Translations under genes and position numbers: made by a program
The notes under the pieces: generated by a model
Told to the model about the DNA's origin: nothing
The model's input: only the letters and a program-made list of their open reading frames with translations
Database searches by the model: none
Assembly (NCBI RefSeq): GCF_003585925.1
Contig: NZ_NRJH01000012.1
Location: 1-64,000 of the forward strand
Direction: 5' to 3'
Length of the DNA: 64,000 bases
Origin: Psittacicella melopsittaci
GTDB lineage: Bacteria > Pseudomonadota > Gammaproteobacteria > Enterobacterales > Psittacicellaceae
Shown here: positions 16,041 through 34,277 of the stretch, in pieces
Numbering within the stretch: the stretch's first letter is position 1
Layout: every line of letters begins with the position of its first letter

Positions 16041-16047
16041 TAAAATA

Positions 16048-16080
16048 ACCTCCGAGCTTTAAGTTCGGAGGTATTTTTTT
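16048..16080 (+). terminator. Terminator of cpdB
   Basis: ACCTCCGA / TTCGGAGGT hairpin followed by ATTTTTTT, just after the cpdB stop. Confidence 0.9.
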
Positions 16081-16090
16081 AGAATAAAAT

Positions 16091-16116
16091 TAAGTCCTCG
16101 CAAAAGCGAGGACTTA
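16091..16116 (-). terminator. Terminator of the 396-residue porin gene
   Basis: TAAGTCCTCG / CGAGGACTTA with loop CAAAAG; on the minus strand it is followed by ATTTTAT. It faces the cpdB terminator. Confidence 0.75.
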
Positions 16117-16138
16117 TTTGGTTCGAACTAAATTTCTC

Positions 16139-17329
16139 TTACCATGTAGTAATTAAACCTGTTGCCACAGCAAATCTATGTGCAGATAATTGTGTACCAT
16201 AGTTTTTATAGTAGTCAGTATAAGATACTAACCCTTCAGCAAATACAGTAAAGTTAAAAGTACCTAATACTTTACTTGCTAAGTTATATGAAGTACCGAA
16301 GTAACCTTCATAAGCATTGTTAGCTCTTGTTGCTGCACCAGTCTTAGATTTGATTTCTGTATTAGCATATAGGAAACCAGTATAAGGAGTAAAAGCACCT
16401 ACCCTATAGCTTAGGTCAATACCAGCACTCGTGTAACGAGTGCTGGTCGCCGCTGTTTCAGCTTTAGCCGTACTCACTTCCGCACGAACACGTAAATTAC
16501 CTAATGGACGTAGATCAGCACCTAATTGGAAACCTTTAGTTGCATATTTATTTGTATAGCTTGCGTATACTTGTTTTTGTGCAGCTAAAAGTTGCACTTG
16601 ACCTAGGTTACCTAATTGGTAAATTAAAGCACCAGATACTTCTGTATCGTAACGGCGTTTATTTTCACCATTTAGAGTTTGTTGACTACGCATGTCACCA
16701 TAAGAAACAGAGGCACTTAGAGGTACATTAGCACTTAAATTAGGAGTAGTATAGTTAATTAAGCGATCTTGTGTATCTAAGTAAGCATAGGTAATAGCAC
16801 GCTTTTGGTTACCTAAATAAAGAGTACTTGTACCAAAGTCACGTACGTCAGCAGAACCTTGAGCTGTAACATAATCACCTGTAGATAAAGCAAGAGTTAA
16901 ACGACCATAGGTTTTACTATCTAAGTAAGTGTAGAAACGGTCGATTCGCACTGGCATTTTATTGTGTCTAGGTGAATAGGTTTTTGCCCCGTAAGAACGA
17001 TCAGCATAAGTCCAAGTTACTCTATAAGCATGAGTACTTGAGAAAGTGTGAGTCGCTCGTAAATATGCTCCTGCAGTTAAGTCATCGTTAATGTACTGAC
17101 GTAGAGTAAACATTAAACGCGTACGTAAACTCCATACTCCAGAGTCATTTTTTACATAGTTAGCTTCATTCTTAGTTTGATTATTTTGGTCAAGGTAACC
17201 TAAACGTACATGACCTGCAAAGCTTAGGCTTGATTTATTATCATTCCAAGAAAGAAGTCGCACAGCAGCCGAGCTAGTGCTTACCACAGCTGTTGCTAGG
17301 GCGAGAGAAATTAAAGTCTTCTTAAACAT
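16139..17329 (-). CDS. Outer-membrane porin-like protein (396 residues)
   Basis: The start is set at the ATG of MFKKTLISLALATAVVSTSSA, a clear signal peptide; an upstream in-frame TTG would add seven residues ahead of it. The mature part alternates polar and aromatic residues in beta-strand style, with many Tyr and Arg (LSFAGHVRLGYLD, RFYTYLDSKTYGRLTLALS, GDYVTAQGSADVRDFGTST) and ends in VATGLITTW, a terminal aromatic as in trimeric porins. Length 396 fits the Gram-negative porin family. The DFGTST element recurs in the other porin-like protein (20871-22172), so they are likely distant paralogues. Inference: diffusion pore in the outer membrane; substrate unknown. Confidence 0.8.
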   Translation of the reverse strand: MFKKTLISLALATAVVSTSSAAVRLLSWNDNKSSLSFAGHVRLGYLDQNNQTKNEANYVKNDSGVWSLRTRLMFTLRQYINDDLTAGAYLRATHTFSSTHAYRVTWTYADRSYGAKTYSPRHNKMPVRIDRFYTYLDSKTYGRLTLALSTGDYVTAQGSADVRDFGTSTLYLGNQKRAITYAYLDTQDRLINYTTPNLSANVPLSASVSYGDMRSQQTLNGENKRRYDTEVSGALIYQLGNLGQVQLLAAQKQVYASYTNKYATKGFQLGADLRPLGNLRVRAEVSTAKAETAATSTRYTSAGIDLSYRVGAFTPYTGFLYANTEIKSKTGAATRANNAYEGYFGTSYNLASKVLGTFNFTVFAEGLVSYTDYYKNYGTQLSAHRFAVATGLITTW

Positions 17330-17700
17330 ATAATTCAAAACAACAAACAAAAAAAAACAAAAAAATTAGAGAAAACTCCAAAAAACTTGGAGTTAACGGC
17401 TAAATAGCAATCATTACTATTTAGACAATATTAAGCATTATACCTATTTTATTGAGCTGAGAAAAAATAACTTTTATAGATAAATGACAGATCATTTATA
17501 TTATTTAACTAAGTAAAGGATAATTAGGCAAGCTAAATTACTTCCTCAAGAAAAGATCTCGCCAAAAACCCTTACTTTAAGTAGGTCTTTTAAGATAGAC
17601 AAGGGCATAATTGTTTATTTTAAGTACATAAAATTGAGTAATTATTTATTATTTTTTCAACAAAAAAATGAACCCTTAGTTACCTAAGAGTTCTATTTTT
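17330..17700 (-). promoter_or_regulatory. Upstream region of the porin gene, with -10 box and a terminator
   Basis: On the minus strand TATAAT lies at 17442-17437, about 108 bases before the porin ATG; the -35 is poor. The remainder is AT-rich. The terminator of the 714-residue gene (17663-17693) ends the interval. Confidence 0.5.
17663..17693 (-). terminator. Terminator of the 714-residue gene
   Basis: Minus-strand GAACTCTTAG / CTAAGGGTTC with loop GTAA, then ATTTTTTT. Confidence 0.85.
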
Positions 17701-19845
17701 TTATTTTTTGCCACGTTTACGTGCCGAGCGACTTACTCGCATTACTTTATTTTTTGGGATAACAACTTTTTTAACTTTTCTCTCAGGTGCTTTTACCTCT
17801 GGTTCTGGTTCGCTAAATGGCACTGAGAAGTCGCCGTTAATTGTTTCTTTAAGGCTGTTTAAGTAATTTAAGTCTTCACCTAGATTGCGAGCATTTCTTT
17901 GTTGCTGGGCTTGCATATGCGAGAATAAAGCCTGCTCAAGATTTGGACGCCCTGCTGATTCTGGTTTAGTTTGTTTGGCTTCGAGAAGCTTGTCAATTTG
18001 CCCAAAACCTTCAGGAGTTGCTTTACCACGGAATTGGCGATCTTTTTGGCTTTGTGCTTTGGCAACAAGAGCAAGTTTATCTTGGTGAGCAAAAGTAGGA
18101 GTTAATAGCTCACTTAAAGACACTTTAATCTTGGCTTTAACATTTTTGAGAGCCCCAACACGATTTTGCGGTAAAACTTCACTTGCTAAAAAGTATTTTT
18201 CTTTATTACCTTTTTTACGCTGACTATAGTTAGCAAACGCATTTTTGTAAGCTTCTTTTAAGAACTCGAGTTGCTCTGGCGTGTATTTTTGCTCTCTTTG
18301 ACGGATGCGTAAACTACGCATTGCTGTGTACTCATCCAGCACTTTAGCTACATTTTCTTGATAAGCTTGTACTTGCGGAGCATAGTCTTGGGCTAAATCT
18401 AAAGCTTGAGTTTGGCTTGTTTGCAGCGAAATCATTTTCTTAACAAACTCTTGTTGCTCTGAGTTGAGGTCTTCGGCAAGAACACTATGAGCATGTTGTA
18501 ATACAACTGGAGCTAAAGCTTGGGCTTTAGGTTCAACAAAAGCAGGAACATACACCGAACCTTGTTCATCTCCATAGCTATCGATAAACACATCGAGAAG
18601 ATCTGGTGAGTTATAGTCAATTGCTACATAGTCTGGTAACTCAGTGCAATTGGTATAGATATCCGCTAAATGATAAACATGGTTAGCAAAATAAAGAGGA
18701 TCGTCTTTATTTTTAAGATAGCTATTGAGATCGATTACCGCATCAAGATTTAACTCAGGATCCTTGCTAGTAAAGGTTGGATTAATGCCTTGATTTGGGT
18801 CTTGTTGTTTTTCTCTTAATTCTTCCATGGTATGAAGAATACGAGCATAGGCTTTACGTAAAGAATCAACAATAAAGTTAAAGCTCTCTGGATAGTTTTG
18901 CTTTTGTTTATTAATTTGCTCTTGGAAAAATTCTTTTTGTTCTTCTCGACGTGGGAAACAAGCTAAAGTTCCTAAGTGTTTTACTGAACGAGCAAACTCA
19001 TGTAAAGGTTTACCACTATTAGCAAATAAACGTCCAAGTTTATAGTAGTTTTCTGGAAGCCCTAGTTCTGGGTTATAAACATAGTGATCAACAATGTAGC
19101 TTAAACTACGCGTGTGTTGATCGGTAAGATCAAATCTAAAGAACCAGAATGGAGCTTGAGATTCAAGATCTATTTTAGCCAGACTAGCGTGATAGCATGC
19201 TCCTAAACCTAAACTAAAGGCAATGTAACTATAACTCGACATATATAGATCTAACAGATCTAAAATGCGTTGTTGGTTATAGATATTGTGTTCTTTGTGT
19301 AAGTAAGCAAACACAAACTTAAACATTGCACTAGTTAAAACAAATGGTGGGAACTTTTTATAGCGCTCTGGAGCTATTTGTTCAAAACCATTGTTAGGAT
19401 CACGCATTTTTTCTGCCATATAGTCGATTTCATTTAGGTTAAGAGCTTCGACATTAGCAAAAGCGTTCTTAGTATCTATCTCGGTTAAATAGTAATCATA
19501 GTAGGTTACCATTTTCATGAGAATAATATGACGTAAATCGCGATCGTCGTTATTTGCTATTAATAAAGAAGCGTATAACGAGCTAAAAGTTAAAACTAAT
19601 AACCCTGTGCTATAAGCTTTTTTACCCTCGGTATTAACTAAACGAAAAGCACGATTTGAATCATGGTTAAATGATTTTTCGCGCCCATGTTTTTGCGAGT
19701 TAATGGTTCGATTTAAATGGAAAATTGAATTTACTATAGGGTCATTAAAATTTAAGCGATTGGTAAAGTTTACCGTAAACTCTAATTCTATTAAAATTGC
19801 TCGGTAGAGATCCGGAGCATAATTCATTTTTTTGCTAAACTTCAT
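17701..19845 (-). CDS. Protein of unknown function (714 residues)
   Basis: I do not recognise this protein. It has no signal peptide; one mildly hydrophobic stretch (YSTGLLVLTFSSLYASLLIA, about 92-111) is probably buried helix rather than membrane. The first 350 residues look alpha-helical with many Tyr, Phe and Leu. A charged, Gln-rich helical middle (430-560) follows. The end is a Pro/Lys/Arg-rich basic tail (KVKKVVIPKNKVMRVSRSA then RKRGKK), suggesting nucleic-acid or ribosome contact, which is only inference. The start is well supported: AGAGGTG lies eight bases before the ATG. It has its own terminator and no operon partners, and sits between two porin genes with similar composition to its neighbours. 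Confidence 0.85.
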   Translation of the reverse strand: MKFSKKMNYAPDLYRAILIELEFTVNFTNRLNFNDPIVNSIFHLNRTINSQKHGREKSFNHDSNRAFRLVNTEGKKAYSTGLLVLTFSSLYASLLIANNDDRDLRHIILMKMVTYYDYYLTEIDTKNAFANVEALNLNEIDYMAEKMRDPNNGFEQIAPERYKKFPPFVLTSAMFKFVFAYLHKEHNIYNQQRILDLLDLYMSSYSYIAFSLGLGACYHASLAKIDLESQAPFWFFRFDLTDQHTRSLSYIVDHYVYNPELGLPENYYKLGRLFANSGKPLHEFARSVKHLGTLACFPRREEQKEFFQEQINKQKQNYPESFNFIVDSLRKAYARILHTMEELREKQQDPNQGINPTFTSKDPELNLDAVIDLNSYLKNKDDPLYFANHVYHLADIYTNCTELPDYVAIDYNSPDLLDVFIDSYGDEQGSVYVPAFVEPKAQALAPVVLQHAHSVLAEDLNSEQQEFVKKMISLQTSQTQALDLAQDYAPQVQAYQENVAKVLDEYTAMRSLRIRQREQKYTPEQLEFLKEAYKNAFANYSQRKKGNKEKYFLASEVLPQNRVGALKNVKAKIKVSLSELLTPTFAHQDKLALVAKAQSQKDRQFRGKATPEGFGQIDKLLEAKQTKPESAGRPNLEQALFSHMQAQQQRNARNLGEDLNYLNSLKETINGDFSVPFSEPEPEVKAPERKVKKVVIPKNKVMRVSRSARKRGKK

Positions 19846-20712: not shown

Positions 20713-20870
20713 AATACATGTGTCTACAATAGTTTTTATTGCCCACAACTTGATTGTGAAGCTGTGATAAATTATTTTAAAGAAACTTCTATACTTAACT
20801 AATTTACAAAAGACTAATCTTTCCAAGTGTTTAGTACTCTTTCTTATGTTTTAGATTAATAAGATTGAAT

Positions 20871-22172
20871 ATGAAAAAAACACTTTTAGCTTTAGTATTA
20901 GGAAGCATGGCAGCTTCTTCATTTGCTTACGTTAATTTATTTGCTTCAGCAGATGGTCGTTCTACGATCCAATTAGGGTTAGACTTACGTCTTCACTATA
21001 TCTATGATGGTAAAGACCTTGATATTCGTAATGGGGCTACACAATCTCAAGATTGGGTAAATACTTTAGGTTTCCGTCCACGTGTTCAATTACGTGCTCG
21101 TGCATGGTTAAATCCAAGAACTAACATCGGTTTTGATTCGCGTATCGGTGCTAACTGGATTAACTCACACGCAGGTATGCAAAATGCTACAGCGTCTCGT
21201 ACACAATACTACGGTACTATTAACTATGGTACTTACGATACACGTGCACAAGCTTTCCCTGAACGCTACACTTTAGAAAATGGTGTTACTAAACAAAAAA
21301 CTCGTTCAATTACCAATCCACGTTTTGAACGTTTATATGTTTACTTTGAAAACTTTGACTTCGGTAGAATCACTATCGCTCCAGGTTTATCAAACATCCG
21401 TTCTCAAGAACAAGGGGCTGCAGATTATAACGATTTCGGTACTTCAACCAACGTTGTAACTACTCCATACTCAGCTTTATCTGATGTATACTTAACTTAT
21501 GCAGACTGGACTGCTCGTTATGATCTAACTAGCGATCCTAACAAAAAATACCGTGTTGCAGTTTCAACATCTTGGAAACAAGGCGAAAGATACGTTGATG
21601 GTCGTAACAAATACGCGCGTGATATCCAAGCTTCATTTGGTTGGAAATTTGACCGCAATAACTCTATCTACTTAAACTTAGCTACAGCTCGTAGCATTAA
21701 TGAAAGCACAACGGCATTCTTAGGTTACACAACTGCATGGGGTGCTGAAGTTTACTTAGACTTACGTCCAATTCCAGGCTACAGAGATTTACGCGTACGT
21801 ACTAATGTTTCTGTGTTAAAACAACACGACTACAACCGTGACCAACCATCTCACAAAGCTTCGTTTGGTTTAGATGTACAACACAACAATACTTTTGTTA
21901 AAGGCTTAACAGTTTACGGTGGTTACATCAACAAATACACTAAATCTCACTACAACAGAAATACTGGTAACTACAGCCAAGTACAAGAATCAGCTACTTA
22001 CTTAGGTACAGAATACTGGGTATTTGATTCATACGCTGGTGATGCATTTAGCTTAAAATACTTTGTTGAAGGTAACTACTACAAAGTTAGAAATACTACA
22101 GCTGCTTCAACTCGTGTAGTTAATAAACTAACAGACAAACAAGTAGCTACAGGCTTTAGATTATTCTACTAA
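20871..22172 (+). CDS. Outer-membrane porin-like protein (433 residues)
   Basis: The start is set at the ATG giving MKKTLLALVLGSMAASSFA, a signal peptide; an in-frame TTG two codons upstream is less likely. The mature protein is rich in Tyr, Arg, Asp and aromatic beta-strands (GLDLRLHYIYDGKDLDIRNG, RVQLRARAWLNPRTNIGFD, RITIAPGLSNIRSQEQGAADYNDFGTST), and ends in KQVATGFRLFY with a terminal aromatic. Length and layout fit general porins. It resembles the other porin at DFGTST and in strand rhythm. Codon use is strongly biased (CGT, GGT, TTA, AAA), suggesting high expression. Regulation may be complex, given the repeated operator-like arrays upstream. Substrate is unknown. Confidence 0.82.
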   Translation: MKKTLLALVLGSMAASSFAYVNLFASADGRSTIQLGLDLRLHYIYDGKDLDIRNGATQSQDWVNTLGFRPRVQLRARAWLNPRTNIGFDSRIGANWINSHAGMQNATASRTQYYGTINYGTYDTRAQAFPERYTLENGVTKQKTRSITNPRFERLYVYFENFDFGRITIAPGLSNIRSQEQGAADYNDFGTSTNVVTTPYSALSDVYLTYADWTARYDLTSDPNKKYRVAVSTSWKQGERYVDGRNKYARDIQASFGWKFDRNNSIYLNLATARSINESTTAFLGYTTAWGAEVYLDLRPIPGYRDLRVRTNVSVLKQHDYNRDQPSHKASFGLDVQHNNTFVKGLTVYGGYINKYTKSHYNRNTGNYSQVQESATYLGTEYWVFDSYAGDAFSLKYFVEGNYYKVRNTTAASTRVVNKLTDKQVATGFRLFY

Positions 22173-22985: not shown

Positions 22986-25900
22986 ATGAATTTAAGTGAA
23001 AATGAATTTGAAAAAAACGTAATCGACACTTTAACTAGTTTATACCCATATGGTTGGGATTTTTTAAACAGTAAACTTACCCGTGAAAGCGATTATGTAT
23101 CTGAAGACAGGTTATTAAGAAACCTTAAAGAAATCATAGAAAGAAACAACCGTTCGATATTACTTCAATCAGGCTCGGCAAAACTTGACGACCAAGAATT
23201 CAAAGAAGTTATTAATGAGATTAGGGAATCTATCTACAACAAAGAAAATTCTAAAGGATTTGTGCCATTTAATGCGGCTGTCTTTTTACAAAGTAGTGGT
23301 AGACCTACCGAAGTCCAAATTACCCGTACAAGTGATCACAAAGAACATAAAATATCTTTAATTCTCTTTTCTTCGGATGAGAAAAAACCTCAAGGGTATA
23401 GAGACTACCAACCGACTTATCAAATTGCTCAACAAGTTCAAATTGGTAACTACCGTGCGGATTTAATGTTACTAATTGATGGTCTTCCTGTAGTTCTCTT
23501 TGAGAATAAAAGAAAAGATGTAGATATTAATGGAGCTTATAGTCAAGTTAAGCGTTATCTTAATGAAATCGATCAAAAACAACTAACAATTTTCTCTACA
23601 ATTCAAGTTTGTGCAGTAGCTAAAGAAAATGAGTTAAGATACTTTGCTCGTCCAAATACTAACGAAGATATTGACAGAAAATATTGCTATCAATGGACCG
23701 AAAAAAATAAAGACATCAAAACCTTCGGTGATCTCCATTTAAAAAGAATTGATCTCGATAGTCAAAAGGAAATTCCGGCTTCATTTGAGGTTCCAGTAAC
23801 TGACGTAACTTTAGTGTTAAAAAATCTATTTACCCCTCTAAATACACGTCATATGGTGACTAACCATATTATTACTGAAAAAGGTATCAGGCCTAGAATT
23901 ATGCTCATGCGTAAATACCAAGCTAAGGCAGTAGATGAGTGCATTTCTCGAATTAACAAAATGCTAACCCATCTTGACGATGAGGGACACTTTACGCAAG
24001 TTGGTAGTGATATAGAGCCAATAGTGCAAAAAACTAAAACGGTAGTTAACCGCTTAGGTTATGTATGGCATACTACGGGAGCGGGGAAAACCGTAACCAG
24101 TTTTAAAATTGCTAACCTTATTGCCCGCAGTGAAAGTAAAATCCAAAAAGTAGTTTTTCTTGTTGATCGTATTGACTTAAGAAAACAAACTTATGATAAC
24201 TTCAGTCGCTTTTTAACTTCGTCTGAAGACAGCCTTATAGTTATCGATAACTCAGAAGGAAGTGGTAGTAGAACCCTTGGGGAAGCTCTTGCAAGCAACC
24301 AAACAAATAATATTACTATTACTACTATTCAAACTTTACATAAGTTCCTTACTAGCTCTAACCCTGAGTATAAAGAGTTAGCCGATATAGCAGCCGAAAA
24401 AAATATTCTGTTTATTGTTGATGAAGCCCATCGTTCGACAAGCGGTGACTCTTTAAAAGAGATTCGTAATATTCTAAAATACACCGCATGGATTGGTTTT
24501 ACTGGTACTCCGAATCTCGATGACTATAAACCAGAATATCTCGGAACTTACAAAAACACCGAGGCTATATTTGGTAAATTAGTACACTCATATACCATTT
24601 TACAAGCTATTTATGATAATAACGTGCTTGGTTTTGATGTGCACTTTACCCAAATAGATAACATTCAACAGGTTTTTGATCCAGAAAAAAATACTGACTT
24701 TGCTAACTTTGCGGCAAAAGAAAAATTTACTTTTGAGCCGTATGAAGATGAAAGTCCAGATGATTACAATAAGCGCTATAACGAAGTTACGGATAAATAC
24801 CTTAACTTAAAACTCAAGCACGCAGAGCAAAGTCAAGTTGCTAAAAACTATATTAAAAGCATAGTTGCCTTTACGCTAGAAAACTGGAAGCTCTTTTCTA
24901 AAGAGCGTAAATTCAGTGGTATGTTAACTACCACTTCCATTAACATGGCTTATCACATTTTCTGTGAGTTTAGAGATCAACTTGCACAAATGAGTGAAGA
25001 AAGGAAAAAAGCTCTCTTTGTTGACAACCTGAAGTTTACGGCTATTTTTAGTGACAAAGTTGATAATAAAGGCGATGGCGATGACAAAGCCTACTTAAAA
25101 GAAATCAGAGAGCACTACCGTAATACTCTTGGCTTCAATGATAACTTCCATGAAAGTGATGCTATGGAACGTATCAAGCGCGTTAATCGTAAAGAAAAAG
25201 AGGATCCTAAAGAATATTTAGACTTAATTATTGTTGTTGACAAGCTTTTAACTGGGTTTGATGCACCAAAACTACACACTTTAATTGTTGATCGTATCTT
25301 AAGTGGCGCAAAACTAATTCAAGCTTACTCAAGAACTAACCGTCTTTCTAATTACAAACCTTACGGTAAGATCATTAATTTACGTGCACCACAACGTAAT
25401 AAAGAAGAGTTCTTAGCAGCTATGAAAACCTACTCGGGACTTAGTGAAGATGATAAGTTTGATGCTAAGGTTATAATGCCTGAGCAGGATGAGCTGGTAA
25501 TAAGAATTGCTAAACGCCAAGAAGATTTAGCAAGAGTTAATGCTGTATTTAGCAACTCTGAATCCCCGTTTAATCTCCCGTACATTCGTGAATATGGTTT
25601 AGCAGGTCTCGCAATTCCAGATCTAACTTCAACAGACGAAGGCTCTGAAAGCTATAAGTTATTAAAAGAGTTGCACTCTATTCTGAGAGATATTAATTAC
25701 TTAACTCTGCAAGCTAAAGACCGTCCTTTAGAATATAATGCCGAGGGTAAACTTATTTCTGGTTATGATGAAAATGACCCTGATGCGTTTTATGAATCTC
25801 TAGGTCTTAAAGATAAAGAGACCTACCAAAAAGGTTATGTGGATCCTCAATCTCTCATTGGACAGCAATTAGCTAACTTTCGGGCAAGTAAAAAGTCAGA

Positions 25901-26615
25901 AAATCCTAATTCACCCTTTCTCGAAGAAGAAGAGGTAGAAGAAGATCAAATTGGCGATAATCTTTACCAATTAAATATTCTTGAAGAAGAAAATCTTCGT
26001 GTTACTAAACAAAAAGTTATAGAGTTTATCCATCAGTTTATTGATACTGGCTTAGCTACCACCCCAACGCGCGAAGCCTTTATTGAAACAACTCTAAAAA
26101 CTTTAGAGACTCTAAAAACTATGGATTACTACGAGATAGCGTCTCACTTTAAAGCAGCCCTTGCGTGTGTTGAAAATGAACTCAATTCTTTATTTAACAG
26201 TAATAAAAATTTTGATGTAGAAGAACTGGAGAAACACTTCAAAGAGTTCTTCAAGAACGCGCAAAGCATTATCGAAGGCAATAATAGCGGAGATTCTCTC
26301 AATAGTATAGTTTTCGGTTTTCAGTTTGATGTCTTTATTGACAAAGTTAAAAGTAATCCTTCTACATATCCGTTTATCAACTTTGATGAACAAACTATAA
26401 AGACAATTGAAAAGTTTAGAAAAGAGGCTATTTATAATCTCAACAATCCTAATAGTGATGTAAGAACTTTCCGCCCTCGAATTTCATATTTTACTGATGA
26501 AATTAACAAAAGTAGAAGTCGATTTGTAATATTAAGCGACTCTGATCCTGTAAAAATCTTTGAAAACGACTTAAACAGAATCGTTACCGCAGCTTATCAA
26601 ATTCCAGAAGCTTAA
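22986..26615 (+). CDS. Type I restriction enzyme R subunit-like protein, copy 1
   Basis: HsdR proteins combine an endonuclease and a DNA translocase motor. The N-terminal nuclease shows the PD-(D/E)xK core: the Asp of NYRADLMLLIDG (about 158) and LFENKRK (about 173-179). Motor motifs follow: Walker A WHTTGAGKT (about 360), DEAHRST (about 477), GFTGTPN (about 503) and AYSRTNRL (about 783). A long C-terminal helical domain completes 1209 residues, within the upper range for the family. It is followed by a close paralogue at 27155, and neither HsdM nor HsdS is in the window. All nuclease and motor residues look intact. The ATG is chosen because the nearby promoter and the paralogue begin alike (MNLSENEFEKN / MKITESQFESN). 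Possible roles: restriction with a methylase encoded elsewhere, or a stand-alone defence. Confidence 0.92.
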   Translation: MNLSENEFEKNVIDTLTSLYPYGWDFLNSKLTRESDYVSEDRLLRNLKEIIERNNRSILLQSGSAKLDDQEFKEVINEIRESIYNKENSKGFVPFNAAVFLQSSGRPTEVQITRTSDHKEHKISLILFSSDEKKPQGYRDYQPTYQIAQQVQIGNYRADLMLLIDGLPVVLFENKRKDVDINGAYSQVKRYLNEIDQKQLTIFSTIQVCAVAKENELRYFARPNTNEDIDRKYCYQWTEKNKDIKTFGDLHLKRIDLDSQKEIPASFEVPVTDVTLVLKNLFTPLNTRHMVTNHIITEKGIRPRIMLMRKYQAKAVDECISRINKMLTHLDDEGHFTQVGSDIEPIVQKTKTVVNRLGYVWHTTGAGKTVTSFKIANLIARSESKIQKVVFLVDRIDLRKQTYDNFSRFLTSSEDSLIVIDNSEGSGSRTLGEALASNQTNNITITTIQTLHKFLTSSNPEYKELADIAAEKNILFIVDEAHRSTSGDSLKEIRNILKYTAWIGFTGTPNLDDYKPEYLGTYKNTEAIFGKLVHSYTILQAIYDNNVLGFDVHFTQIDNIQQVFDPEKNTDFANFAAKEKFTFEPYEDESPDDYNKRYNEVTDKYLNLKLKHAEQSQVAKNYIKSIVAFTLENWKLFSKERKFSGMLTTTSINMAYHIFCEFRDQLAQMSEERKKALFVDNLKFTAIFSDKVDNKGDGDDKAYLKEIREHYRNTLGFNDNFHESDAMERIKRVNRKEKEDPKEYLDLIIVVDKLLTGFDAPKLHTLIVDRILSGAKLIQAYSRTNRLSNYKPYGKIINLRAPQRNKEEFLAAMKTYSGLSEDDKFDAKVIMPEQDELVIRIAKRQEDLARVNAVFSNSESPFNLPYIREYGLAGLAIPDLTSTDEGSESYKLLKELHSILRDINYLTLQAKDRPLEYNAEGKLISGYDENDPDAFYESLGLKDKETYQKGYVDPQSLIGQQLANFRASKKSENPNSPFLEEEEVEEDQIGDNLYQLNILEEENLRVTKQKVIEFIHQFIDTGLATTPTREAFIETTLKTLETLKTMDYYEIASHFKAALACVENELNSLFNSNKNFDVEELEKHFKEFFKNAQSIIEGNNSGDSLNSIVFGFQFDVFIDKVKSNPSTYPFINFDEQTIKTIEKFRKEAIYNLNNPNSDVRTFRPRISYFTDEINKSRSRFVILSDSDPVKIFENDLNRIVTAAYQIPEA

Positions 26616-26639
26616 AGATGGTTTTTAGGATAAAAATAA

Positions 26640-26678
26640 AAGTCCAGCGAATTTTATATTTGCTGGACTTATTTTTTT
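26640..26678 (+). terminator. Terminator of first hsdR copy
   Basis: AAGTCCAGC / GCTGGACTT with a 13-base loop, then ATTTTTTT. The 30 bases between stop codon and stem are shared with the second copy. Confidence 0.85.
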
Positions 26679-27154
26679 CTCGCTAAAATGAACAAAAAAA
26701 TTTACGAACCATAGTTTGGTTTTACTTACTTAAACATGAGAAAGAAAAAAGGAATTTTACTAAATAAACAGCTTATCTAGATAAAATTATTGTAATTTGG
26801 CTATTTTACTTAAGTTATAGGCTAGATAACAGGATAATATTAAAACAAAGTACTTACATTAACCATCCTAAAAATATTACGAGCTTAAAAGCAGTAAAGA
26901 TAGAGTGTATCCGATAAGCTATAAGCAACATTAAAAAGAAAAAACAATACAAACCAAACACTACTAACTAAGAGAGTAAATTAAGTTTACAGTACGAATG
27001 ATAAAGCATTGAAAATAAAAAACTTCTAACCTATAATTAATTATAAGAGAACATAAAAATAATCAATCTTGGCAAATAAAAAACAACACTAAAGTCCGTT
27101 GTTTTAGATATTAATTTAAATAACCTTAAACAAAATTAGGAGCACTGTTAATAT
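26679..27154. other. AT-rich spacer between the two hsdR genes
   Basis: No gene or remnant of hsdM/hsdS is seen. TATAAT at 27032-27037 is a likely -10 for the second copy, leaving a leader of about 110 bases; AGGAGC at 27138-27143 is its ribosome site. Confidence 0.6.
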
Positions 27155-30100
27155 ATGAAAATTACGGAATCTCAATTTGAAAGTAACATTATAGAAACTT
27201 TAACTAGTTTACAGCCTCGTGCTTGGGAGTTTTTAAATAATAAGCTAAATAAAAAAAGCACTTATTTAACTGAAAATGATTTAAAAGAAAATCTTAAAGA
27301 AATCATTGAAAGAAACAACCGTACTATATTAATTAAATCTGGCTCGGCAGAACTTAAGGAACAAGAATTCAGAGAAATTCTTAATGAAATTGAGGAATCT
27401 ATCTACAACAAAGAAAATTCTAAAGGATTTGTGCCATTTAATGCAGCAGTATTTTTACAAAGTAGTGGTAGAGCTACCGAAGTCAAAATTACCCGTAAAG
27501 GTGACGACGAAAATAAAAAAACGCCTTTAGTTCTATTTTCTCCAGAAGAGAAAAAACCTAATGGGTACAGAGACTACGAACCTACTTATCAAATTGCTCA
27601 ACAAGTTCAAATTGGTAACTACCGTGCGGATTTAATGTTACTAATTGATGGCCTCCCAGTAGTTCTCTTTGAGAATAAAAGAGAAGATGTAGATATTAAT
27701 AGAGCTTATAATCAAGTTAAGACTTATCTTAAGGAAATCGATAATAAACATCTAACCATTTTCTCTACAATTCAAGTATGCGTAGTAGCTAAAGAAAATT
27801 GGTTAAGATACTTTGCTCGTCCAAATAAAAACGATAAGATTGACAAAAATTATTGTTATCAATGGACTGAAAGAAGTAAAGATATCAAAAACCTCGGCGA
27901 GCACCAATTACAAAGAATAGATCTATATAGTCAAAAGGAAATTCCAGCTTCATTTGAGACTCCAGTAACTGACGTAACTTTAGTGCTAGAGAGACTATTT
28001 ACTCCTCTAAATGTACGTAATATGGTGACTAACCATATTATTGCTGAAAAAGGTATCAAGCCTAGAATTATGCTCATGCGTAAGTACCAAGCTAAGGCAG
28101 TAGATGAGTGCATTTCTCGGATTAACAAAATGCTAACCCATCTTGACGATGATGGACACTTTACGCAAGTTGATAACGATATTAATCCAACTCTACAAAA
28201 AACTAAAACGGTAGTTAACCGCTTAGGTTATGTATGGCATACAACGGGAGCGGGGAAAACCGTAACTAGTTTTAAAATCGCTAACCTTATTGCTCGCAGT
28301 GAAAATAAAATCCAAAAAGTAGTTTTTCTTGTCGATCGTATTGACTTGAGAAAACAAACTCATAATAACTTCAGTCGCTTTTTAACGTCGTCTGAAAACA
28401 GCCTTATAGTTATAGATAATTCAATAGGAAGTGGCAGTGAAAGTGACAGTGAAAACACCAGTGAAAACACCAGTGAAAGTGGTAGTAAAAGTAGCAGTAA
28501 AGGTGGCAGTAAAAGTGGCAGTATAAAACTTGGGGAAGCTCTCGCAGACGACGAAAAAAATAATATTATTATTACTACTATTCAAACTTTACATAAGTTC
28601 CTTACTAGCTCTAACCCTAAGTATAAAGAGTTAATCGATAATGCGTCTGAAAAAAATATTCTGTTTATTGTTGATGAAGCCCATCGTTCGACAAGCGGTG
28701 ACTCTTTAAAAGAGATTCGTAATATTCTAAAATACACCGCATGGATTGGTTTTACAGGTACTCCGAATCTCGATGACTATAAACAGGAAAATCAAGGAAA
28801 ACATAAAAACACCGAGGCTATATTTGGTAACTTAATACACTCATATACCATTTTACAAGCTATTTATGATAGGAATGTGCTTGGTTTTGATGTGCATTTT
28901 ACCCAAATAGAAGACATTAAACAGGTTTTTGATCCAGAAAAAAATACTGACTTTGCTAACTTTGCGGTAAAAGAAAAATTTTCTTTTAAGCCGTATGAAA
29001 ATGAAAGTCCAGATGATTATACTAAGCGCTATAACGAATTTACGGACAAATACCTTAACTCAAAACTCAAAGAAGAACAAAGTCAAATTGCCAAAAACTA
29101 TATAAAAAGCATAGTTGCCTTTACGCTTAAAAACTGGAAGCTCTTTTCTAAAGAGCGTAAATTCAGTAGTATGTTAACCACCTCTTCCATTAACATGGCT
29201 TATCACATTTTCTGTGAGTTTAGAGATCAACTTGCACAAATGAGTGAGGCAGAGAAAAAAGCTCTCTTTGTTGACAACCTGAAGTTTACGGCTATTTTTA
29301 GTAACACGGTTGATTATAAAGGCGATGGCGATGACAAAGCCTACTTAAAAGAAATCAGAGAACACTACCATAATACTCTTGGCTTCAATGAGAACTTCCA
29401 TGAAAGTGATGCTATGGAACGTATCAAGCGCGTTAATCGTAAAGAAAAAGAGGATCCTAAAGAATATTTAGACTTAATTATTGTTGTTGACAAGCTTTTA
29501 ACCGGGTTTGATGCACCAAAACTACATACTTTAATTGTTGATCGTGTCTTAAGTGGAGCAAAACTAATTCAAGCTTATTCAAGAACTAATCGTCTTTATA
29601 AGAGGATCAAACCTTTTGGTAAGATCATTAATTTACGTGCACCACAACGTAATAAAGAAGAGTTCTTAGCAGCTATGAAAACCTACTCGGGACTAAGTAA
29701 AGGAGATAAGTTTGATACTAAGGTTATCATGCCTGATCGAAAAAACCTGCGTAAAATAATTACTAAAAGGAAGATAGATTTAGTAAGAATTTTTAAAAAA
29801 CATTTCAATTCTGAATCTCCGATTAATCTCAGTCACATTAGTAAATATGGTTTATCAAGACTCGAAATTCCAGATATAACTTCAATAGAAGAAGATGCTG
29901 ACACATATAAGCACTTAAAAAGTGTGAACCGTATTCTGCAAGGCATTATTAAATTAACTCTGCAAGCTAAAGATAGTCCTTTAGAATATAATGCCAAGGG
30001 TAAACTTATTTCTGGTTATGATGAAAATGACCCTGATTCATTTTATAAACGTCTAGGTCTTAAGGATAAAGACACCTACCAAAAAGGTTATACGAAAGTT

Positions 30101-30865
30101 CATTCTATCATTAAACAGCAAATAGCTAACTATCGGGCAAGTCAAAAGTCAGAAAATCCTAATTCATCCTTTCTCGAAGAAGAGTTAGAAGTAGATCAAA
30201 TTGGCGAAGCTCTTTACCAATTAAATATTCTTGAAGAAGAAAACCTTCGCGTTACTAAACAAAAAGTTATAGAGTTTATCCATCAGTTTATTGATGTTGG
30301 CTTAGCTACCACCCCAACGCGCGAAGCCTTTATTAAAACAACTCTAAAAACTTTAGAAACTCTAAAAACTATGGATTACTACACGGTAACGCCTCACTTT
30401 AGAGTTGCCCTTGCGTGTATTGAAAATGGACTCAATGATTTATTTAACAGTAATAAAAATTTTGATGTTGAAGAACTGGAGAATCACTTCAAAGAGTTCT
30501 TCAAGAACACGCAAAGCATAATCGAAGGCAATAGAAGCGTAGATTCCATCAAGAGTATAGTTTTCGATTTTCAGTTTGATGCCCTTATTGACAAAGTGAA
30601 AAGTGATCCTACTACATATTCGTTTATCAACTTTGATGAACAAACTATAGAGGTAATTGAAAAGTTTAAAGAAACTATAGTTTATAATCTCAACAATCCT
30701 AATAGTGATGTAAAATTTTTCAGCAATCAAATTAAACATTTTACTGATGAAATTAACACAAGTAGACGTTCATTTGCAATATATAGCGAATCAGATCCTG
30801 AAAAAATCTTTGAAAACGATTTAGAAAGAATCATTAATGAAGCTTATCGAATTCCAACCTCTTAA
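27155..30865 (+). CDS. Type I restriction enzyme R subunit-like protein, copy 2
   Basis: This paralogue aligns with copy 1 over its whole length, with long identical stretches in the motor and more divergence at residues 860-1000. Nuclease residues (RADLMLLIDG, LFENKRE), WHTTGAGKT, DEAHRST, GFTGTPN and AYSRTNRL are all kept. It differs by a Ser/Gly/Glu/Lys low-complexity insertion (about residues 425-455, after NSIGSGS) between the Walker A and DEAH motifs, which accounts for its greater length (1236). The start has a good AGGAGC site. Retention of all motifs in both copies argues against decay. Same context note: no HsdM or HsdS nearby. Confidence 0.92.
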   Translation: MKITESQFESNIIETLTSLQPRAWEFLNNKLNKKSTYLTENDLKENLKEIIERNNRTILIKSGSAELKEQEFREILNEIEESIYNKENSKGFVPFNAAVFLQSSGRATEVKITRKGDDENKKTPLVLFSPEEKKPNGYRDYEPTYQIAQQVQIGNYRADLMLLIDGLPVVLFENKREDVDINRAYNQVKTYLKEIDNKHLTIFSTIQVCVVAKENWLRYFARPNKNDKIDKNYCYQWTERSKDIKNLGEHQLQRIDLYSQKEIPASFETPVTDVTLVLERLFTPLNVRNMVTNHIIAEKGIKPRIMLMRKYQAKAVDECISRINKMLTHLDDDGHFTQVDNDINPTLQKTKTVVNRLGYVWHTTGAGKTVTSFKIANLIARSENKIQKVVFLVDRIDLRKQTHNNFSRFLTSSENSLIVIDNSIGSGSESDSENTSENTSESGSKSSSKGGSKSGSIKLGEALADDEKNNIIITTIQTLHKFLTSSNPKYKELIDNASEKNILFIVDEAHRSTSGDSLKEIRNILKYTAWIGFTGTPNLDDYKQENQGKHKNTEAIFGNLIHSYTILQAIYDRNVLGFDVHFTQIEDIKQVFDPEKNTDFANFAVKEKFSFKPYENESPDDYTKRYNEFTDKYLNSKLKEEQSQIAKNYIKSIVAFTLKNWKLFSKERKFSSMLTTSSINMAYHIFCEFRDQLAQMSEAEKKALFVDNLKFTAIFSNTVDYKGDGDDKAYLKEIREHYHNTLGFNENFHESDAMERIKRVNRKEKEDPKEYLDLIIVVDKLLTGFDAPKLHTLIVDRVLSGAKLIQAYSRTNRLYKRIKPFGKIINLRAPQRNKEEFLAAMKTYSGLSKGDKFDTKVIMPDRKNLRKIITKRKIDLVRIFKKHFNSESPINLSHISKYGLSRLEIPDITSIEEDADTYKHLKSVNRILQGIIKLTLQAKDSPLEYNAKGKLISGYDENDPDSFYKRLGLKDKDTYQKGYTKVHSIIKQQIANYRASQKSENPNSSFLEEELEVDQIGEALYQLNILEEENLRVTKQKVIEFIHQFIDVGLATTPTREAFIKTTLKTLETLKTMDYYTVTPHFRVALACIENGLNDLFNSNKNFDVEELENHFKEFFKNTQSIIEGNRSVDSIKSIVFDFQFDALIDKVKSDPTTYSFINFDEQTIEVIEKFKETIVYNLNNPNSDVKFFSNQIKHFTDEINTSRRSFAIYSESDPEKIFENDLERIINEAYRIPTS
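28430..28525 (+). repeat. Ser-rich short repeats inserted in second hsdR copy
   Basis: Repeats of AGTGGCAGTGAAAGT and AACACCAGTGAA type, all in multiples of three, absent from copy 1 where GGAAGTGGTAGTAGAACC stands at the same point. Confidence 0.8.
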
Positions 30866-30887: not shown

Positions 30888-30930
30888 AAAATTCCACCTA
30901 ATTGCCCAACAATTAGGTGGAATTTTTTTA
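30888..30930 (+). terminator. Terminator of second hsdR copy
   Basis: AAATTCCACCTAATTG / CAATTAGGTGGAATTT with a five-base loop, then TTTTTA. Confidence 0.9.
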
Positions 30931-31129: not shown

Positions 31130-31960
31130 CTAAACAAATGGATTATAAAAACGTCCTTGATTAAGTTCCCAGCAAACAAAAACTGTAGCTAGAATTAATA
31201 AAGCAAGAACTATTACTAGATAATCGGTTACTTGCATTTTTCTTTGACTAATCCAAGTACGGCGTTTATTTTGCCCAAATCGGCGTAATTCCATTGCTTG
31301 GTTTATCGAGTCTATATTATTAAAGGAGTTAAGTAACAGAGGCATTACCTGTGCTACTATCGCTTTTACTCTTTGCCAGAAAGGTGCTTTACGCGATAAG
31401 TCTAAGCCACGAGCTTGTTGCGATTTACTGATTGCCTGATATTGAGCTTGCACATCAGGAATATAACGTAAGGTTAAAGCTACAGCATAGCTCAGACGAT
31501 AACTTAAGCCGATTTGATTTAAACTCGAAGCAAACTGACTTGGGTTAGTAGTCATTAAAAAGGCAATAGCTAGAGGTACTGTACATATGTACTTGAGCAC
31601 CATGTTAGCTAAAAAGAAAAACTCTTCGTAGGTAAACTGAAAATATCCCCAACCCGCAAATATCGGGTTATAGGTACCATACAGAGAGTTGCCATGCGTA
31701 GGATCAAAAACATACACCATGACAAGGTTTAATACCGAGAAAAAGAGAATAAATTTCACGACAAAGCTTATTTCAACATAGCGTATTTTAGAGAGCTTGA
31801 GAATAAGCAATGAACTTACGGAAATAAAGATTAATAATCTTGTATCGTAAGTTAACATCGAAGCAGTTACCACGATAATAAAATATAAGAGCTTAGCCGT
31901 AGAATGCAGGCGATGAACTAGCGAATTTTTAGGAATAAACCCCATTACATTGTTACTCAT
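31130..31960 (-). CDS. ECF transporter T component
   Basis: EcfT is the membrane coupling subunit of energy-coupling-factor importers. The protein has about five to six hydrophobic segments and the two Ala-Arg-Gly style coupling motifs: SQQARGLDLS and AMELRRFGQ, which contact the ATPases. The start is placed at the ATG of MSNNVMGF, which has GGAGAG about eight bases upstream; an in-frame start eight codons earlier is weaker. It overlaps the end of the ATPase gene by eight bases. Length 276 is typical. Last gene of the operon. Confidence 0.88.
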   Translation of the reverse strand: MSNNVMGFIPKNSLVHRLHSTAKLLYFIIVVTASMLTYDTRLLIFISVSSLLILKLSKIRYVEISFVVKFILFFSVLNLVMVYVFDPTHGNSLYGTYNPIFAGWGYFQFTYEEFFFLANMVLKYICTVPLAIAFLMTTNPSQFASSLNQIGLSYRLSYAVALTLRYIPDVQAQYQAISKSQQARGLDLSRKAPFWQRVKAIVAQVMPLLLNSFNNIDSINQAMELRRFGQNKRRTWISQRKMQVTDYLVIVLALLILATVFVCWELNQGRFYNPFV

Positions 31961-33665
31961 GATGCACTCTCCGATCGTAAGCAATAAATTTTTCCGTAAA
32001 GACTACAGGATTAGCCAAGCCCATACGTTGGGCTAAGACAAATAAGCTAGTTTCTTTTAAGGCAGCTTGTTTTACTAAACTTGGGTTAGTTAAAACTTTT
32101 ACTGGCGTTGTATCAGAAACTATTTGTCCATTTACCATTACTATTGCACGGTGGGTATACTCGAGCATTAGATGCATGTCATGGGTCACCATAATAATAG
32201 TTACGCCAAGGCGGTTAATTTGTCTTAAAAACTCCATGAGCTCGGTATAGTGTTTATAATCTTGTCCTGCCGTAGGTTCATCTAAAATAATTACCTTAGG
32301 ATCTAAGACTAAAATCGAAGCTATGGTTAAACGTTTTTTCTGGCCATAAGAAAGGGCGGATACGGGCCAGTTACGCATGGCATACAGACCACAAGTGCGC
32401 AGAACTTGATGAACGCGTGTTTCTACTTCTTTTTCTGGTACCTTACGAAAACGTAAGCCTAGAGCTACTTCATCGTAAATTTTTACTTGGGTAATCATTT
32501 GGTTAGGGTTTTGCATAACATAACCCACATGGTCGGCAATTTCTTTAATGCTCCAGGCTTGCATATTTTGCCCTTCCCAGCTTAGTTGCCCCTTGCTTGT
32601 CCGCTCAAAACCACAAATGATTTTTGCTAAAGTAGACTTCCCTGCTCCGTTTTTCCCCACCAGAGAAATCATTTCCCCTTTGCCTATTTCAAGATTTATA
32701 TTTTTTAAAATCGTTGGCGTATCTTCACTATAAGCAAATGAAACCTTTTCTAGTTTAATCAGACTTTGGGCTTTTACTTGTGGCACTACTGCAGGTTGAC
32801 TTGCTTGCCATTGGGCAAGTTTAGTTGCTATCTCAGCACCTGCTAAAGTATCTATCGACGCAATATTTTCTACTTGATCGAGGTCTACGCCAGCATAGCG
32901 TAAAGCCGTTACCCATAGAGGTTCACGTATGCCCAGCTCGGCTAGAGTGTTACTTTTGAGTAAAGCCTCTGGAGTTGTATCGGCTGCTATTTGCCCATGA
33001 CTAAACACAATAATGCGGTCAACATTGGCAATTAACACATCTTCGAGACGGTGTTCAATAATTACAACTGTAGCTTGCGTTTGGGCTTGAATTTGAGCAA
33101 TTAACTTAGTTGAATCTTGCCCTGAAGCTGGGTCAAGGTTTGCCAGTGGCTCATCAAAAAGTAAAATTGGCGTTTCATCAACAAGCACGCCTGCAAGGGA
33201 TACACGTTGCTTTTGTCCCCCTGAAAGATCATGAGGAGATTTTTCTAAAAGTTCTTCTACGCCTACGGCTTTTGCCCATTTTTGTACTTGTTCTTGCATT
33301 TGCTCACGTGGGACACAAGAGTTTTCTAAGGCAAAGGCTATATCTTCTTCAACGGTAAGACCAACAAATTGATGGTCAGTATCTTGTAATACTGTACCTA
33401 TAGAATTACTTAACTCAAAAAGCGAAGAGTTTTTTGTAACTACACCATTTACGGTTAATTCACCAGTTATTTTTCCTGGAAAGGCGTGAGGGATAAGTCC
33501 ATTAATACAGTTACCAAGTGTACTTTTACCTGAACCTGAAGGTCCAAGAATTAATACTTTTTCCCCTGGATAAATATCGAGATTTATATCTTTTAACGTT
33601 GGCTCGGCTTGAGCATCATATTTAAAGTTAAAATTTTTAAATGAAATAATCGGTTGTTTGTCCAT
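31953..33665 (-). CDS. ECF transporter, two fused ATPase domains
   Basis: A single 570-residue chain carries two complete ABC ATPase domains, equivalent to EcfA and EcfA'. Domain 1: Walker A GPSGSGKST (41-49), signature LSGGQKQR, Walker B LLFDEPLA. Domain 2 begins near residue 300: Walker A GKNGAGKST, signature LSYGQKKR, Walker B IILDEPTAG. Fused ECF ATPases of this type are known next to UPF0397-type S components. A 12-bp hairpin (33676-33701) sits just before its start and no ribosome site is evident, so translation may be adjusted there. It powers the importer formed with EcfT and the S component. Confidence 0.92.
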   Translation of the reverse strand: MDKQPIISFKNFNFKYDAQAEPTLKDINLDIYPGEKVLILGPSGSGKSTLGNCINGLIPHAFPGKITGELTVNGVVTKNSSLFELSNSIGTVLQDTDHQFVGLTVEEDIAFALENSCVPREQMQEQVQKWAKAVGVEELLEKSPHDLSGGQKQRVSLAGVLVDETPILLFDEPLANLDPASGQDSTKLIAQIQAQTQATVVIIEHRLEDVLIANVDRIIVFSHGQIAADTTPEALLKSNTLAELGIREPLWVTALRYAGVDLDQVENIASIDTLAGAEIATKLAQWQASQPAVVPQVKAQSLIKLEKVSFAYSEDTPTILKNINLEIGKGEMISLVGKNGAGKSTLAKIICGFERTSKGQLSWEGQNMQAWSIKEIADHVGYVMQNPNQMITQVKIYDEVALGLRFRKVPEKEVETRVHQVLRTCGLYAMRNWPVSALSYGQKKRLTIASILVLDPKVIILDEPTAGQDYKHYTELMEFLRQINRLGVTIIMVTHDMHLMLEYTHRAIVMVNGQIVSDTTPVKVLTNPSLVKQAALKETSLFVLAQRMGLANPVVFTEKFIAYDRRVHHE

Positions 33666-33675
33666 AGCGAAGGTT

Positions 33676-33701
33676 AAAGCAAGTACAGATGTACTTGCTT
33701 T
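33676..33701 (-). promoter_or_regulatory. Intra-operon hairpin before the ATPase gene
   Basis: AAAGCAAGTACA / TGTACTTGCTTT with a two-base centre, between the S-component stop and the ATPase ATG. On the minus strand it is followed by AACC, not a T-run, so it is more likely an mRNA-processing or stability element than a terminator. Confidence 0.6.
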
Positions 33702-33713
33702 ATCTCATGTTTT

Positions 33714-34277
33714 TTATTTTTCTAATTCTAAAGCACCTGATTTAGTACGAGTTCTAGCGTAAACTGCTAATAAAACTGTACCAATAATCCCTACTGATAG
33801 TGCATTACCAATAGCTGCTACTATACCTTGAAGGTATACTTTGTTAGTTGGTTCAGCGTAAACTGCCGTATCTATGGAAGGAGCTACTACTCCCCAAAGT
33901 ATTAAATTGGCAATGACTTGGATAACATTAAAGATAATAGCTTGTTTTACTGTAAAGTAACCTGCTAAGAGTTTTTTACCATCAACTGCATAACCTAAAA
34001 CTACACCAAGTAGAGCTGAACAACTAATCCAGCTAAACCAAGCTGTACCATATTGGGTAACGTCATTTAAGAAATGCCCAATAAACGCTGCTACACCAGC
34101 AGCAAATGGACCAAAAATACCTGCAAATAAAGCTAAAAAGCCATATGCCGTTTGTAGTTTAGTATTTGGTACTGGAGTTGGTAACATCACAAAACGCATT
34201 AAAATTAAAATTATTGCCGCCCCAATTCCTATTGCCACAACCGTTTTTACCGGATTACGTTTAGTTGCTGTCGCCAT
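33714..34277 (-). CDS. ECF transporter S component (UPF0397-like)
   Basis: A 187-residue protein with about five membrane segments. The opening VKTVVAIGIGAAIILILMRF, then VPNTKLQTAYGFLALFAGIFG and GHFLNDVTQYG, match the UPF0397 family of substrate-binding ECF subunits. The start has AAGGAG nine bases upstream. It lies between the SAM hydroxide adenosyltransferase and the ATPase gene. The substrate cannot be read from the sequence; the neighbour suggests a SAM-derived or nucleoside-type compound (inference). Confidence 0.87.
   Translation of the reverse strand: MATATKRNPVKTVVAIGIGAAIILILMRFVMLPTPVPNTKLQTAYGFLALFAGIFGPFAAGVAAFIGHFLNDVTQYGTAWFSWISCSALLGVVLGYAVDGKKLLAGYFTVKQAIIFNVIQVIANLILWGVVAPSIDTAVYAEPTNKVYLQGIVAAIGNALSVGIIGTVLLAVYARTRTKSGALELEK

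What the first reader, a model, noticed from the sequence alone, without database searches (positions are those of the whole stretch)
22986..30865. Tandem orphan HsdR-type genes without methylase or specificity subunit
Two full-length, motif-intact R subunits stand side by side, each with its own promoter and terminator, with no hsdM, hsdS or remnants nearby. A type I R subunit needs M and S to find DNA. Either both serve an hsdMS elsewhere, giving alternative motors for one system, or they act without methylase as a separate defence. Duplicate R subunits both under selection are unusual.
Basis: partly seen in the sequence, partly recalled or inferred. Interest (0 to 1): 0.75.

Follow-up and report, generated by a model that had tools for sequence, protein, structure and literature searches.

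The report
Twin restriction motors, scattered restriction system
Two neighbouring genes for the DNA-cutting motor of a bacterial defence enzyme look partnerless in this stretch, but the rest of the genome holds one matching methylase gene and at least 22 target-choosing genes, nine of them shut off by a slippery TA repeat, so they are most likely spare motors of one dispersed, switchable restriction system.

Summary
Observation confirmed: two intact HsdR genes (22986-26615; 27155-30865; 77% identical) stand in tandem with no hsdM or hsdS in the window. They are not partnerless. The genome is a Psittacicella (bird-associated Pasteurellales). Outside the window it carries exactly one classical HsdM, beside mukFEB, and at least 22 type I hsdS genes on eight contigs, six of them in an array about 39 kb past the second hsdR on the same contig. 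The hsdR site is syntenic in P. hinzii, which has one hsdR, one hsdM and 11 intact scattered hsdS. Outside the genus, 21 of 24 HsdR relatives have an HsdM within 4 kb. In this species nine hsdS genes are frameshifted at a TA tract exactly 146 nt after the ATG; one sibling with a longer tract is open. Between the two hsdR copies the motor is constrained (dN/dS 0.42), but the C-terminal part, implicated in docking on HsdM-HsdS in EcoR124I, has dN/dS 1.47 (bootstrap 1.05-2.20). Most likely: a dispersed type I system with one methylase, a large switchable specificity repertoire and alternative motors acting in trans. Mycoplasmas are the known parallel; this is a new variant. Cognacy and switching are inferred, not shown.

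The parts
22986..26615 (+). R1: type I restriction subunit HsdR, 1209 aa, intact
   Evidence: ORF; Pfam HSDR_N, SWI2_SNF2, ResIII, T1R_D3; best PDB sequence match EcoR124I HsdR; AlphaFold model (mean pLDDT 65.8) matches EcoR124I HsdR 2w00/4bec/6h2j by Foldseek
27155..30865 (+). R2: tandem paralogue of R1, HsdR, 1236 aa, intact
   Evidence: ORF; 77% identity to R1; same Pfam domains
23460..23510 (+). R1 PD-(D/E)xK nuclease residues D159, E173, K175
   Evidence: invariant in the ten-sequence HsdR alignment
24078..24092 (+). R1 Walker A (G365-A-G-K-T369)
   Evidence: conserved in all rows except that A366 is S in some
24420..24431 (+). R1 DEAH box (D479-H482)
25320..25343 (+). R1 motor motif VI (Q779-AYSRTN-R786)
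25509..26612 (+). R1 C-terminal region (842-1209), counterpart of the part of EcoR124I HsdR implicated in binding HsdM-HsdS; dN/dS 1.47 against R2
   Evidence: EcoR124I CTD role from PMC2878639
29762..30862 (+). R2 C-terminal region, same comparison
28429..28522 (+). In-frame 12-nt tandem repeat (7.8 copies) in R2 coding a Ser-rich insert of about 28 residues inside the motor domain, absent from R1
26640..26670 (+). Intrinsic terminator-like hairpin after R1
27009..27037 (+). Promoter-like site before R2 (TTGAAA-17-TATAAT)
   Evidence: 11 of 12 matches, though sites of this kind are not enriched in the region
30888..30926 (+). Intrinsic terminator-like hairpin after R2; the ~25 nt after the stop resemble those after R1 (TTTTTAGGATAAAAATAAAA)
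20865..22172 (+). Flanking porin-like gene marking the syntenic left edge of the hsdR site (not part of the system)
   Evidence: 54-56% identical neighbour of hsdR in P. hinzii and P. gerlachiana
31130..34277 (-). Flanking ECF-type transporter genes marking the syntenic right edge of the hsdR site (not part of the system)
   Evidence: 73-82% identical neighbours of the single hsdR in P. hinzii

Best explanation
R1 and R2 are alternative restriction/translocation subunits of one dispersed type I restriction-modification system. A single HsdM (contig C6, beside mukFEB) pairs in trans with whichever of at least 22 HsdS subunits is expressed; the M2S complex methylates its target and recruits R1 or R2 (and probably the older paralogue R3 on contig C38) to translocate on and cut unmethylated DNA. 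The expressed specificity set is changed by slippage of a TA tract 146 nt into many hsdS genes and by exchange of target-recognition domains among copies. The motor gene was duplicated in this species; the copies keep the nuclease and motor but are diverging in the C-terminal docking region. Shown here: gene content, synteny, tract positions and reading frames, R1/R2 substitution pattern. Inferred: that R, M and S assemble, that the tracts slip in living cells, and that R1 and R2 are both used.
For: Exactly one HsdM_N protein in this genome, in P. hinzii and in P. gerlachiana. 44 Methylase_S hits in this genome, 39 in type I genes once the type IIG pairs on C7/C58 are removed, giving 22 hsdS bodies with distinct 3' ends; its 48 first-look candidates are the highest of 395 genomes of the order, next highest 25. 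hsdR site syntenic with the single hsdR of P. hinzii, hsdM site syntenic in both named relatives. P. hinzii has one HSDR_N protein in all, so an R1-type HsdR must serve its HsdM and HsdS if that system restricts. Outside the genus-specific set 21 of 24 HsdR relatives have an HsdM within 4 kb; locus G216 holds the best outside HsdM (488 bits), a top HsdR relative and an hsdS with the same LRFPxF...W unit motif as the Psittacicella hsdS. R and M trees both place the genus apart from the G005/G011/G003_C213 operon group. TA tracts: all 12 complete 5' ends have the tract exactly 146 nt after the ATG, lengths 9 (2), 11 (9), 13 (1, the only open one); 11 of the 12 TA tracts of 11 nt or more in 353 kb of this genome lie there.
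Against: No direct evidence of assembly, methylation or restriction. R3, not R1/R2, groups most closely with the HsdR of G216, so R3 could be the main partner of HsdM here. R and M bit scores across outside loci do not correlate (Spearman 0.22, p 0.35). The 11-nt tracts are short, and one open gene of 12 is only weakly below a one-in-three expectation (about 0.05). The genome is 91% complete in 99 contigs, so another hsdM could be missing. The C-terminal dN/dS excess rests on one pairwise comparison.
Confidence: 0.72

Rival explanations
1. R3 (C38) is the working partner of the HsdM/HsdS set, and R1/R2 act apart from it, as methylase-independent nucleases or with another partner.
For: R3 is closer than R1 to the HsdR of G216, whose locus also holds the nearest outside HsdM; three HsdR relatives outside the genus showed no HsdM within the sequence fetched.
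Against: P. hinzii has an R1-type HsdR as its only HSDR_N protein, together with HsdM and 11 intact hsdS. Two of the three HsdM-less outside hits sit near contig ends and have hsdS-like sequence beside them. No Psittacicella genome searched has an R1-type HsdR without HsdM.
Confidence: 0.12
2. The tandem pair is a plain recent duplication (dosage or redundancy) with relaxed constraint, not specialisation.
For: Synonymous divergence is modest (dS about 0.17); one copy in P. hinzii.
Against: Neither copy shows decay: all catalytic motifs intact, equal departures from conserved columns and near-equal lineage-specific changes (R1 32, R2 30 with P. gerlachiana as outgroup). Changes are concentrated in the C-terminal region with dN/dS above 1, while motor and nuclease stay constrained.
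Confidence: 0.2
3. The C-terminal divergence is an arms race: phage anti-restriction proteins attack the HsdR-methylase assembly, and keeping two motors with different docking surfaces guards against one inhibitor. (Compatible with the main explanation.)
For: C-terminal dN/dS 1.47 between copies; HsdR (32-36% identity to congeners) and HsdM (44-56%) are less conserved than their syntenic neighbours in the genus (right-hand hsdR flank 73-82%, left-hand 48-59%, mukFEB 68-84%). EcoR124I has been solved with Ocr and ArdA bound (PDB titles).
Against: No inhibitor, phage or binding data; replacement by gene transfer could also explain the low identity between species.
Confidence: 0.15

Closest known systems
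Mycoplasma few-M/many-S type I systems (M. pneumoniae: 2 hsdM, 10 scattered hsdS, hsdR frameshifted, PMC4537597; M. haemofelis: 21 hsdS, 2 hsdM, 2 hsdR, PMC3196708; review gives 22 as the record, PMC3874165)
   Same: One or two hsdM serving a large set of hsdS; repeat tracts in hsdS; in M. haemofelis also two hsdR
   Different: Here in a gammaproteobacterium; the tract is a TA dinucleotide near the start that shuts the gene off, whereas M. pneumoniae has a 12-bp in-frame repeat in the helical domain; hsdR intact and in diverging tandem copies; hsdR, hsdM and hsdS all unlinked
Staphylococcus aureus core type I system (PMC8942034)
   Same: One core hsdR working with interchangeable hsdMS sets in trans
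   Different: S. aureus keeps hsdM beside hsdS, has few hsdS, and one core hsdR
EcoR124I (type IC) HsdR, PDB 2w00/6h2j/7bst
   Same: Domain order, motifs and fold of R1; HsdM also matches EcoR124II M
   Different: About 21% identity; R1/R2 are 170-200 residues longer
Type I loci with duplicated, recombining hsdS (REBASE survey, PMC7394358)
   Same: Several hsdS per system with movable target-recognition domains
   Different: Those are local inverted-repeat sets within 30 kb; here copies are spread over the genome and many are gated by a reading-frame tract

Membership tests
Type I restriction-modification HsdR | HSDR_N nuclease + SWI2/SNF2 motor + D3 domain in one chain with intact catalytic motifs | tested here: met
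Type I restriction-modification HsdR | Fold of a solved HsdR | tested here: met
   Foldseek top 15 hits all EcoR124I HsdR, E down to 3e-34; model confidence moderate, much of the last 230 residues below pLDDT 50
Type I restriction-modification HsdR | NCBIfam hsdR subfamily score cut-off (a naming aid, not a biological feature) | tested here: inconclusive
   271 and 261 bits against a cut-off of 284.6, E below 1e-76
Type I restriction-modification system | HsdM and HsdS encoded in the same genome | tested here: met
   1 HsdM, at least 22 HsdS
Type I restriction-modification system | R, M and S assemble; ATP-dependent cutting of unmethylated DNA | not testable with these tools
   needs biochemistry or restriction assays
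Dispersed few-M/many-S type I system (Mycoplasma kind) | One or two hsdM, many hsdS at separate chromosomal sites | tested here: met
   same in P. hinzii (1 hsdM, 11 intact hsdS)
Phase-variable hsdS (simple sequence repeat) | Repeat tract inside the ORF whose length sets the frame | tested here: met
   TA tract 146 nt after ATG in 12 genes, 9/11/13 nt, only 13 nt open
Phase-variable hsdS (simple sequence repeat) | Tract length changes within a population | not testable with these tools
   one consensus assembly; only paralogue-to-paralogue length differences seen
Methylase-free HsdR-type defence | No hsdM/hsdS partner in the genome | tested here: not met

The most novel reading that the evidence does not exclude
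A combinatorial restriction machine: one methylase, a tract-gated library of more than 20 specificity subunits (several with an extra decayed N-terminal recognition unit) and three motors whose diverged docking regions prefer different methylase-specificity assemblies, so that both what is recognised and which motor is recruited are switched independently in each cell.
Probability: 0.2. Interest if true: 0.8.

Novelty: new variant of a known kind. Interest (0 to 1): 0.62.

Why it matters
It moves the large, switchable, few-M/many-S design out of Mycoplasma into a gammaproteobacterial genus with cultured species, with an intact and duplicated motor, so that motor-specificity pairing in trans, self-restriction on switching a new hsdS on, and selection on the HsdR docking region become directly testable. 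It also shows that an hsdR without neighbours in a window need not be an orphan.

Tried and rejected
Methylase-free defence: rejected because HsdM and HsdS are present. hsdM/hsdS remnants between or beside R1/R2: none. Homologous upstream regions as a sign of a whole-cassette duplication: upstream sequences are not similar, only a short stretch after the stops is. Slippage switch in R1/R2: the only notable tract is an in-frame 12-nt repeat in R2. Recent gene conversion between R1 and R2: dS is fairly even, no long identical block. R-versus-M score correlation over 21 loci: no signal. The adenine methylases on C1, C7 and C58 as partners: C7 and C58 are type IIG pairs with their own S, C1 is a different enzyme. 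The single genome-contig scan named P. gerlachiana and P. hinzii but not the window's own record; the species is therefore not named, though the remaining described species is P. melopsittaci.

Full report
Observation. The window holds two uninterrupted HsdR genes on the + strand, R1 22986-26615 (1209 aa) and R2 27155-30865 (1236 aa). They are 77% identical end to end, carry HSDR_N, SWI2/SNF2-ResIII and T1R_D3 domains and all nuclease and motor motifs. R1's closest solved relative by sequence and by fold is EcoR124I HsdR. No hsdM or hsdS lies in the window.

The partners. The window is positions 1-64000 of contig C4 of a 2.29 Mb draft genome in 99 contigs, 91% complete. A scan of named genomes identifies two of its three congeners as Psittacicella gerlachiana and P. 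hinzii, Pasteurellales. The genome has a single classical HsdM, 609 aa, at C6:22717-24546, directly after mukFEB and without hsdS or hsdR beside it; the naming of mukFEB rests on my reading of the sequences. It has 44 Methylase_S domain hits. Five belong to type IIG pairs on C7 and C58. The other 39 fall in 22 genes with distinct 3' ends on contigs C4, C9, C13, C41, C55, C67, C70 and C85, plus 5' pieces at contig ends; one of the 22 (C41:16063) is below the Pfam cut-off. Six form an array at C4:69899-80312, about 39 kb beyond R2. In a survey of 395 genomes of the order this genome had the most first-look hsdS candidates (48; next 25). That survey scored at most eight per genome, so the ranking uses unscored candidates.

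The genus. P. hinzii (G001) has one HSDR_N protein, one HsdM and 11 intact hsdS of about 400 aa plus a contig-end fragment, mostly single genes among housekeeping genes; one follows hsdM. Its hsdR lies between the same porin and transporter genes as R1/R2, and hsdM follows mukFEB in P. hinzii and P. gerlachiana. So a single hsdR at this site is shared and the tandem copy is seen only here; in P. gerlachiana the contig ends 24 nt after hsdR, so a second copy there cannot be excluded. Two hsdS sites are also syntenic: the C4 array with P. hinzii C3/C140, and C9-C70 with C33. Against P. hinzii, HsdR (32%) and HsdM (44%) are less conserved than their neighbours: right-hand hsdR flank 73-82%, left-hand flank 48-59%, mukFEB 77-83%.

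Do R and M belong together? Of 24 HsdR relatives outside the genus-specific set, 21 have an HsdM within 4 kb. Locus G216 has the best outside HsdM (488 bits), an HsdR among the top matches, and an hsdS whose units begin with the LRFPxF...W motif seen in most Psittacicella type I hsdS but not in the type IIG S genes. R and M trees both keep the genus apart from the G005/G011/G003_C213 operons. Against a simple one-to-one story, R3 (C38:618-3878, lone, beside lepAB, with an orthologue at the same site in P. gerlachiana) groups closer to G216's HsdR than R1 does, and R-M scores do not correlate over loci. Three HsdR of this clade (R1, R2, R3) and one HsdM therefore coexist.

The hsdS switch. Twelve hsdS 5' ends are complete around a TA tract, and in all twelve the tract begins exactly 146 nt after the ATG. 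Tract lengths are 9 nt (2 genes), 11 nt (9) and 13 nt (1). Only the 13-nt gene, C4:69899-71062, is open (384 aa); in the others translation ends at residue 56-61, while the downstream frame stays open, for 331-530 codons wherever the gene is not cut by a contig end. Eleven of the 12 TA tracts of at least 11 nt in 353 kb of this genome sit at this position. Of the 22 genes, nine are open, nine are shut by the tract and four cannot be judged at contig ends. P. hinzii hsdS lack the tract; on G003 contig C181 two hsdS regions have (AT)6 tracts, and the hsdM of a G003 operon has a 20-nt GA tract. Eight of the genes begin with a decayed extra recognition unit before two normal ones. The same recognition-domain types recur in first and second position of different genes, as expected from domain exchange.

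The two motors. Between R1 and R2 dN is 0.123 and dS 0.174. By region dN/dS is 0.59 (nuclease 61-300), 0.42 (motor 301-841; bootstrap 0.30-0.63) and 1.47 (842-1209; 1.05-2.20). Changes since the split are even between copies and neither departs more from conserved columns. In EcoR124I the C-terminal domain is implicated in binding HsdS-HsdM (PMC2878639). The pattern fits two working motors diverging where they meet the methylase; partner preference and escape from anti-restriction proteins are both open as causes. R2 also has an in-frame Ser-rich repeat insert in the motor domain. R1 and R2 each end in a hairpin terminator.

Comparison. Mycoplasmas are the known case of one or two hsdM with up to 22 hsdS (PMC4537597, PMC3196708, PMC3874165). 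S. aureus is the known case of an hsdR serving interchangeable hsdMS sets in trans (PMC8942034). None of the three papers in the library that mention Psittacicella has a title or abstract about restriction systems. The combination here, in a gammaproteobacterium, with tract-gated hsdS, all three gene types unlinked and tandem diverging motors, is a new variant rather than a new kind.

Limits. Everything about assembly, methylation, restriction and live switching is inference. The assembly is a draft with many contigs ending inside hsdS, so the hsdS count is a lower bound and a second hsdM cannot be ruled out. The dN/dS result is a single pairwise estimate.

Noticed in passing
own genome contig C23, L039:5660-13761 (+); homologue P. 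gerlachiana G002:C253:2091-10633: Five-gene cassette with an HsdR-like protein in the middle (415/290/1045/553/395 aa), no hsdM or hsdS; the other four proteins match nothing in Pfam or PADLOC. A possible unnamed HsdR-containing defence cassette.
   Followed up: partly
own genome contig C38, L038:618-3878 (-): Third lone HsdR (R3, 1086 aa) beside lepA-lepB, with an orthologue at the same site in P. gerlachiana (55% identity) and none found in P. hinzii.
   Followed up: yes
own genome contig C4:70895-78393, and C9, C13, C85: hsdS genes with an extra, decayed recognition unit at the front that carries the TA tract, followed by two normal units: three-unit HsdS if ever in frame.
   Followed up: partly
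own genome contig C7:16348-16361 (L025): (TA)7 tract next to GGGG inside the second type IIG restriction-methylase gene (15912-17960), the only TA tract of 11 nt or more outside hsdS in the sequence held.
   Followed up: no
L102:6126-6145 (G003:C213): 20-nt GA repeat near the start of an hsdM-hsdS fusion gene in a congener, likely another on/off switch.
   Followed up: no
L157:5158-5733, L158:4181-4753, L159:7209-7787: A ~190-aa protein resembling half an HsdS lies directly before hsdR in three related loci of other genera.
   Followed up: no
window 37044-48734 (+): 3896-aa open reading frame with no Pfam match.
   Followed up: partly
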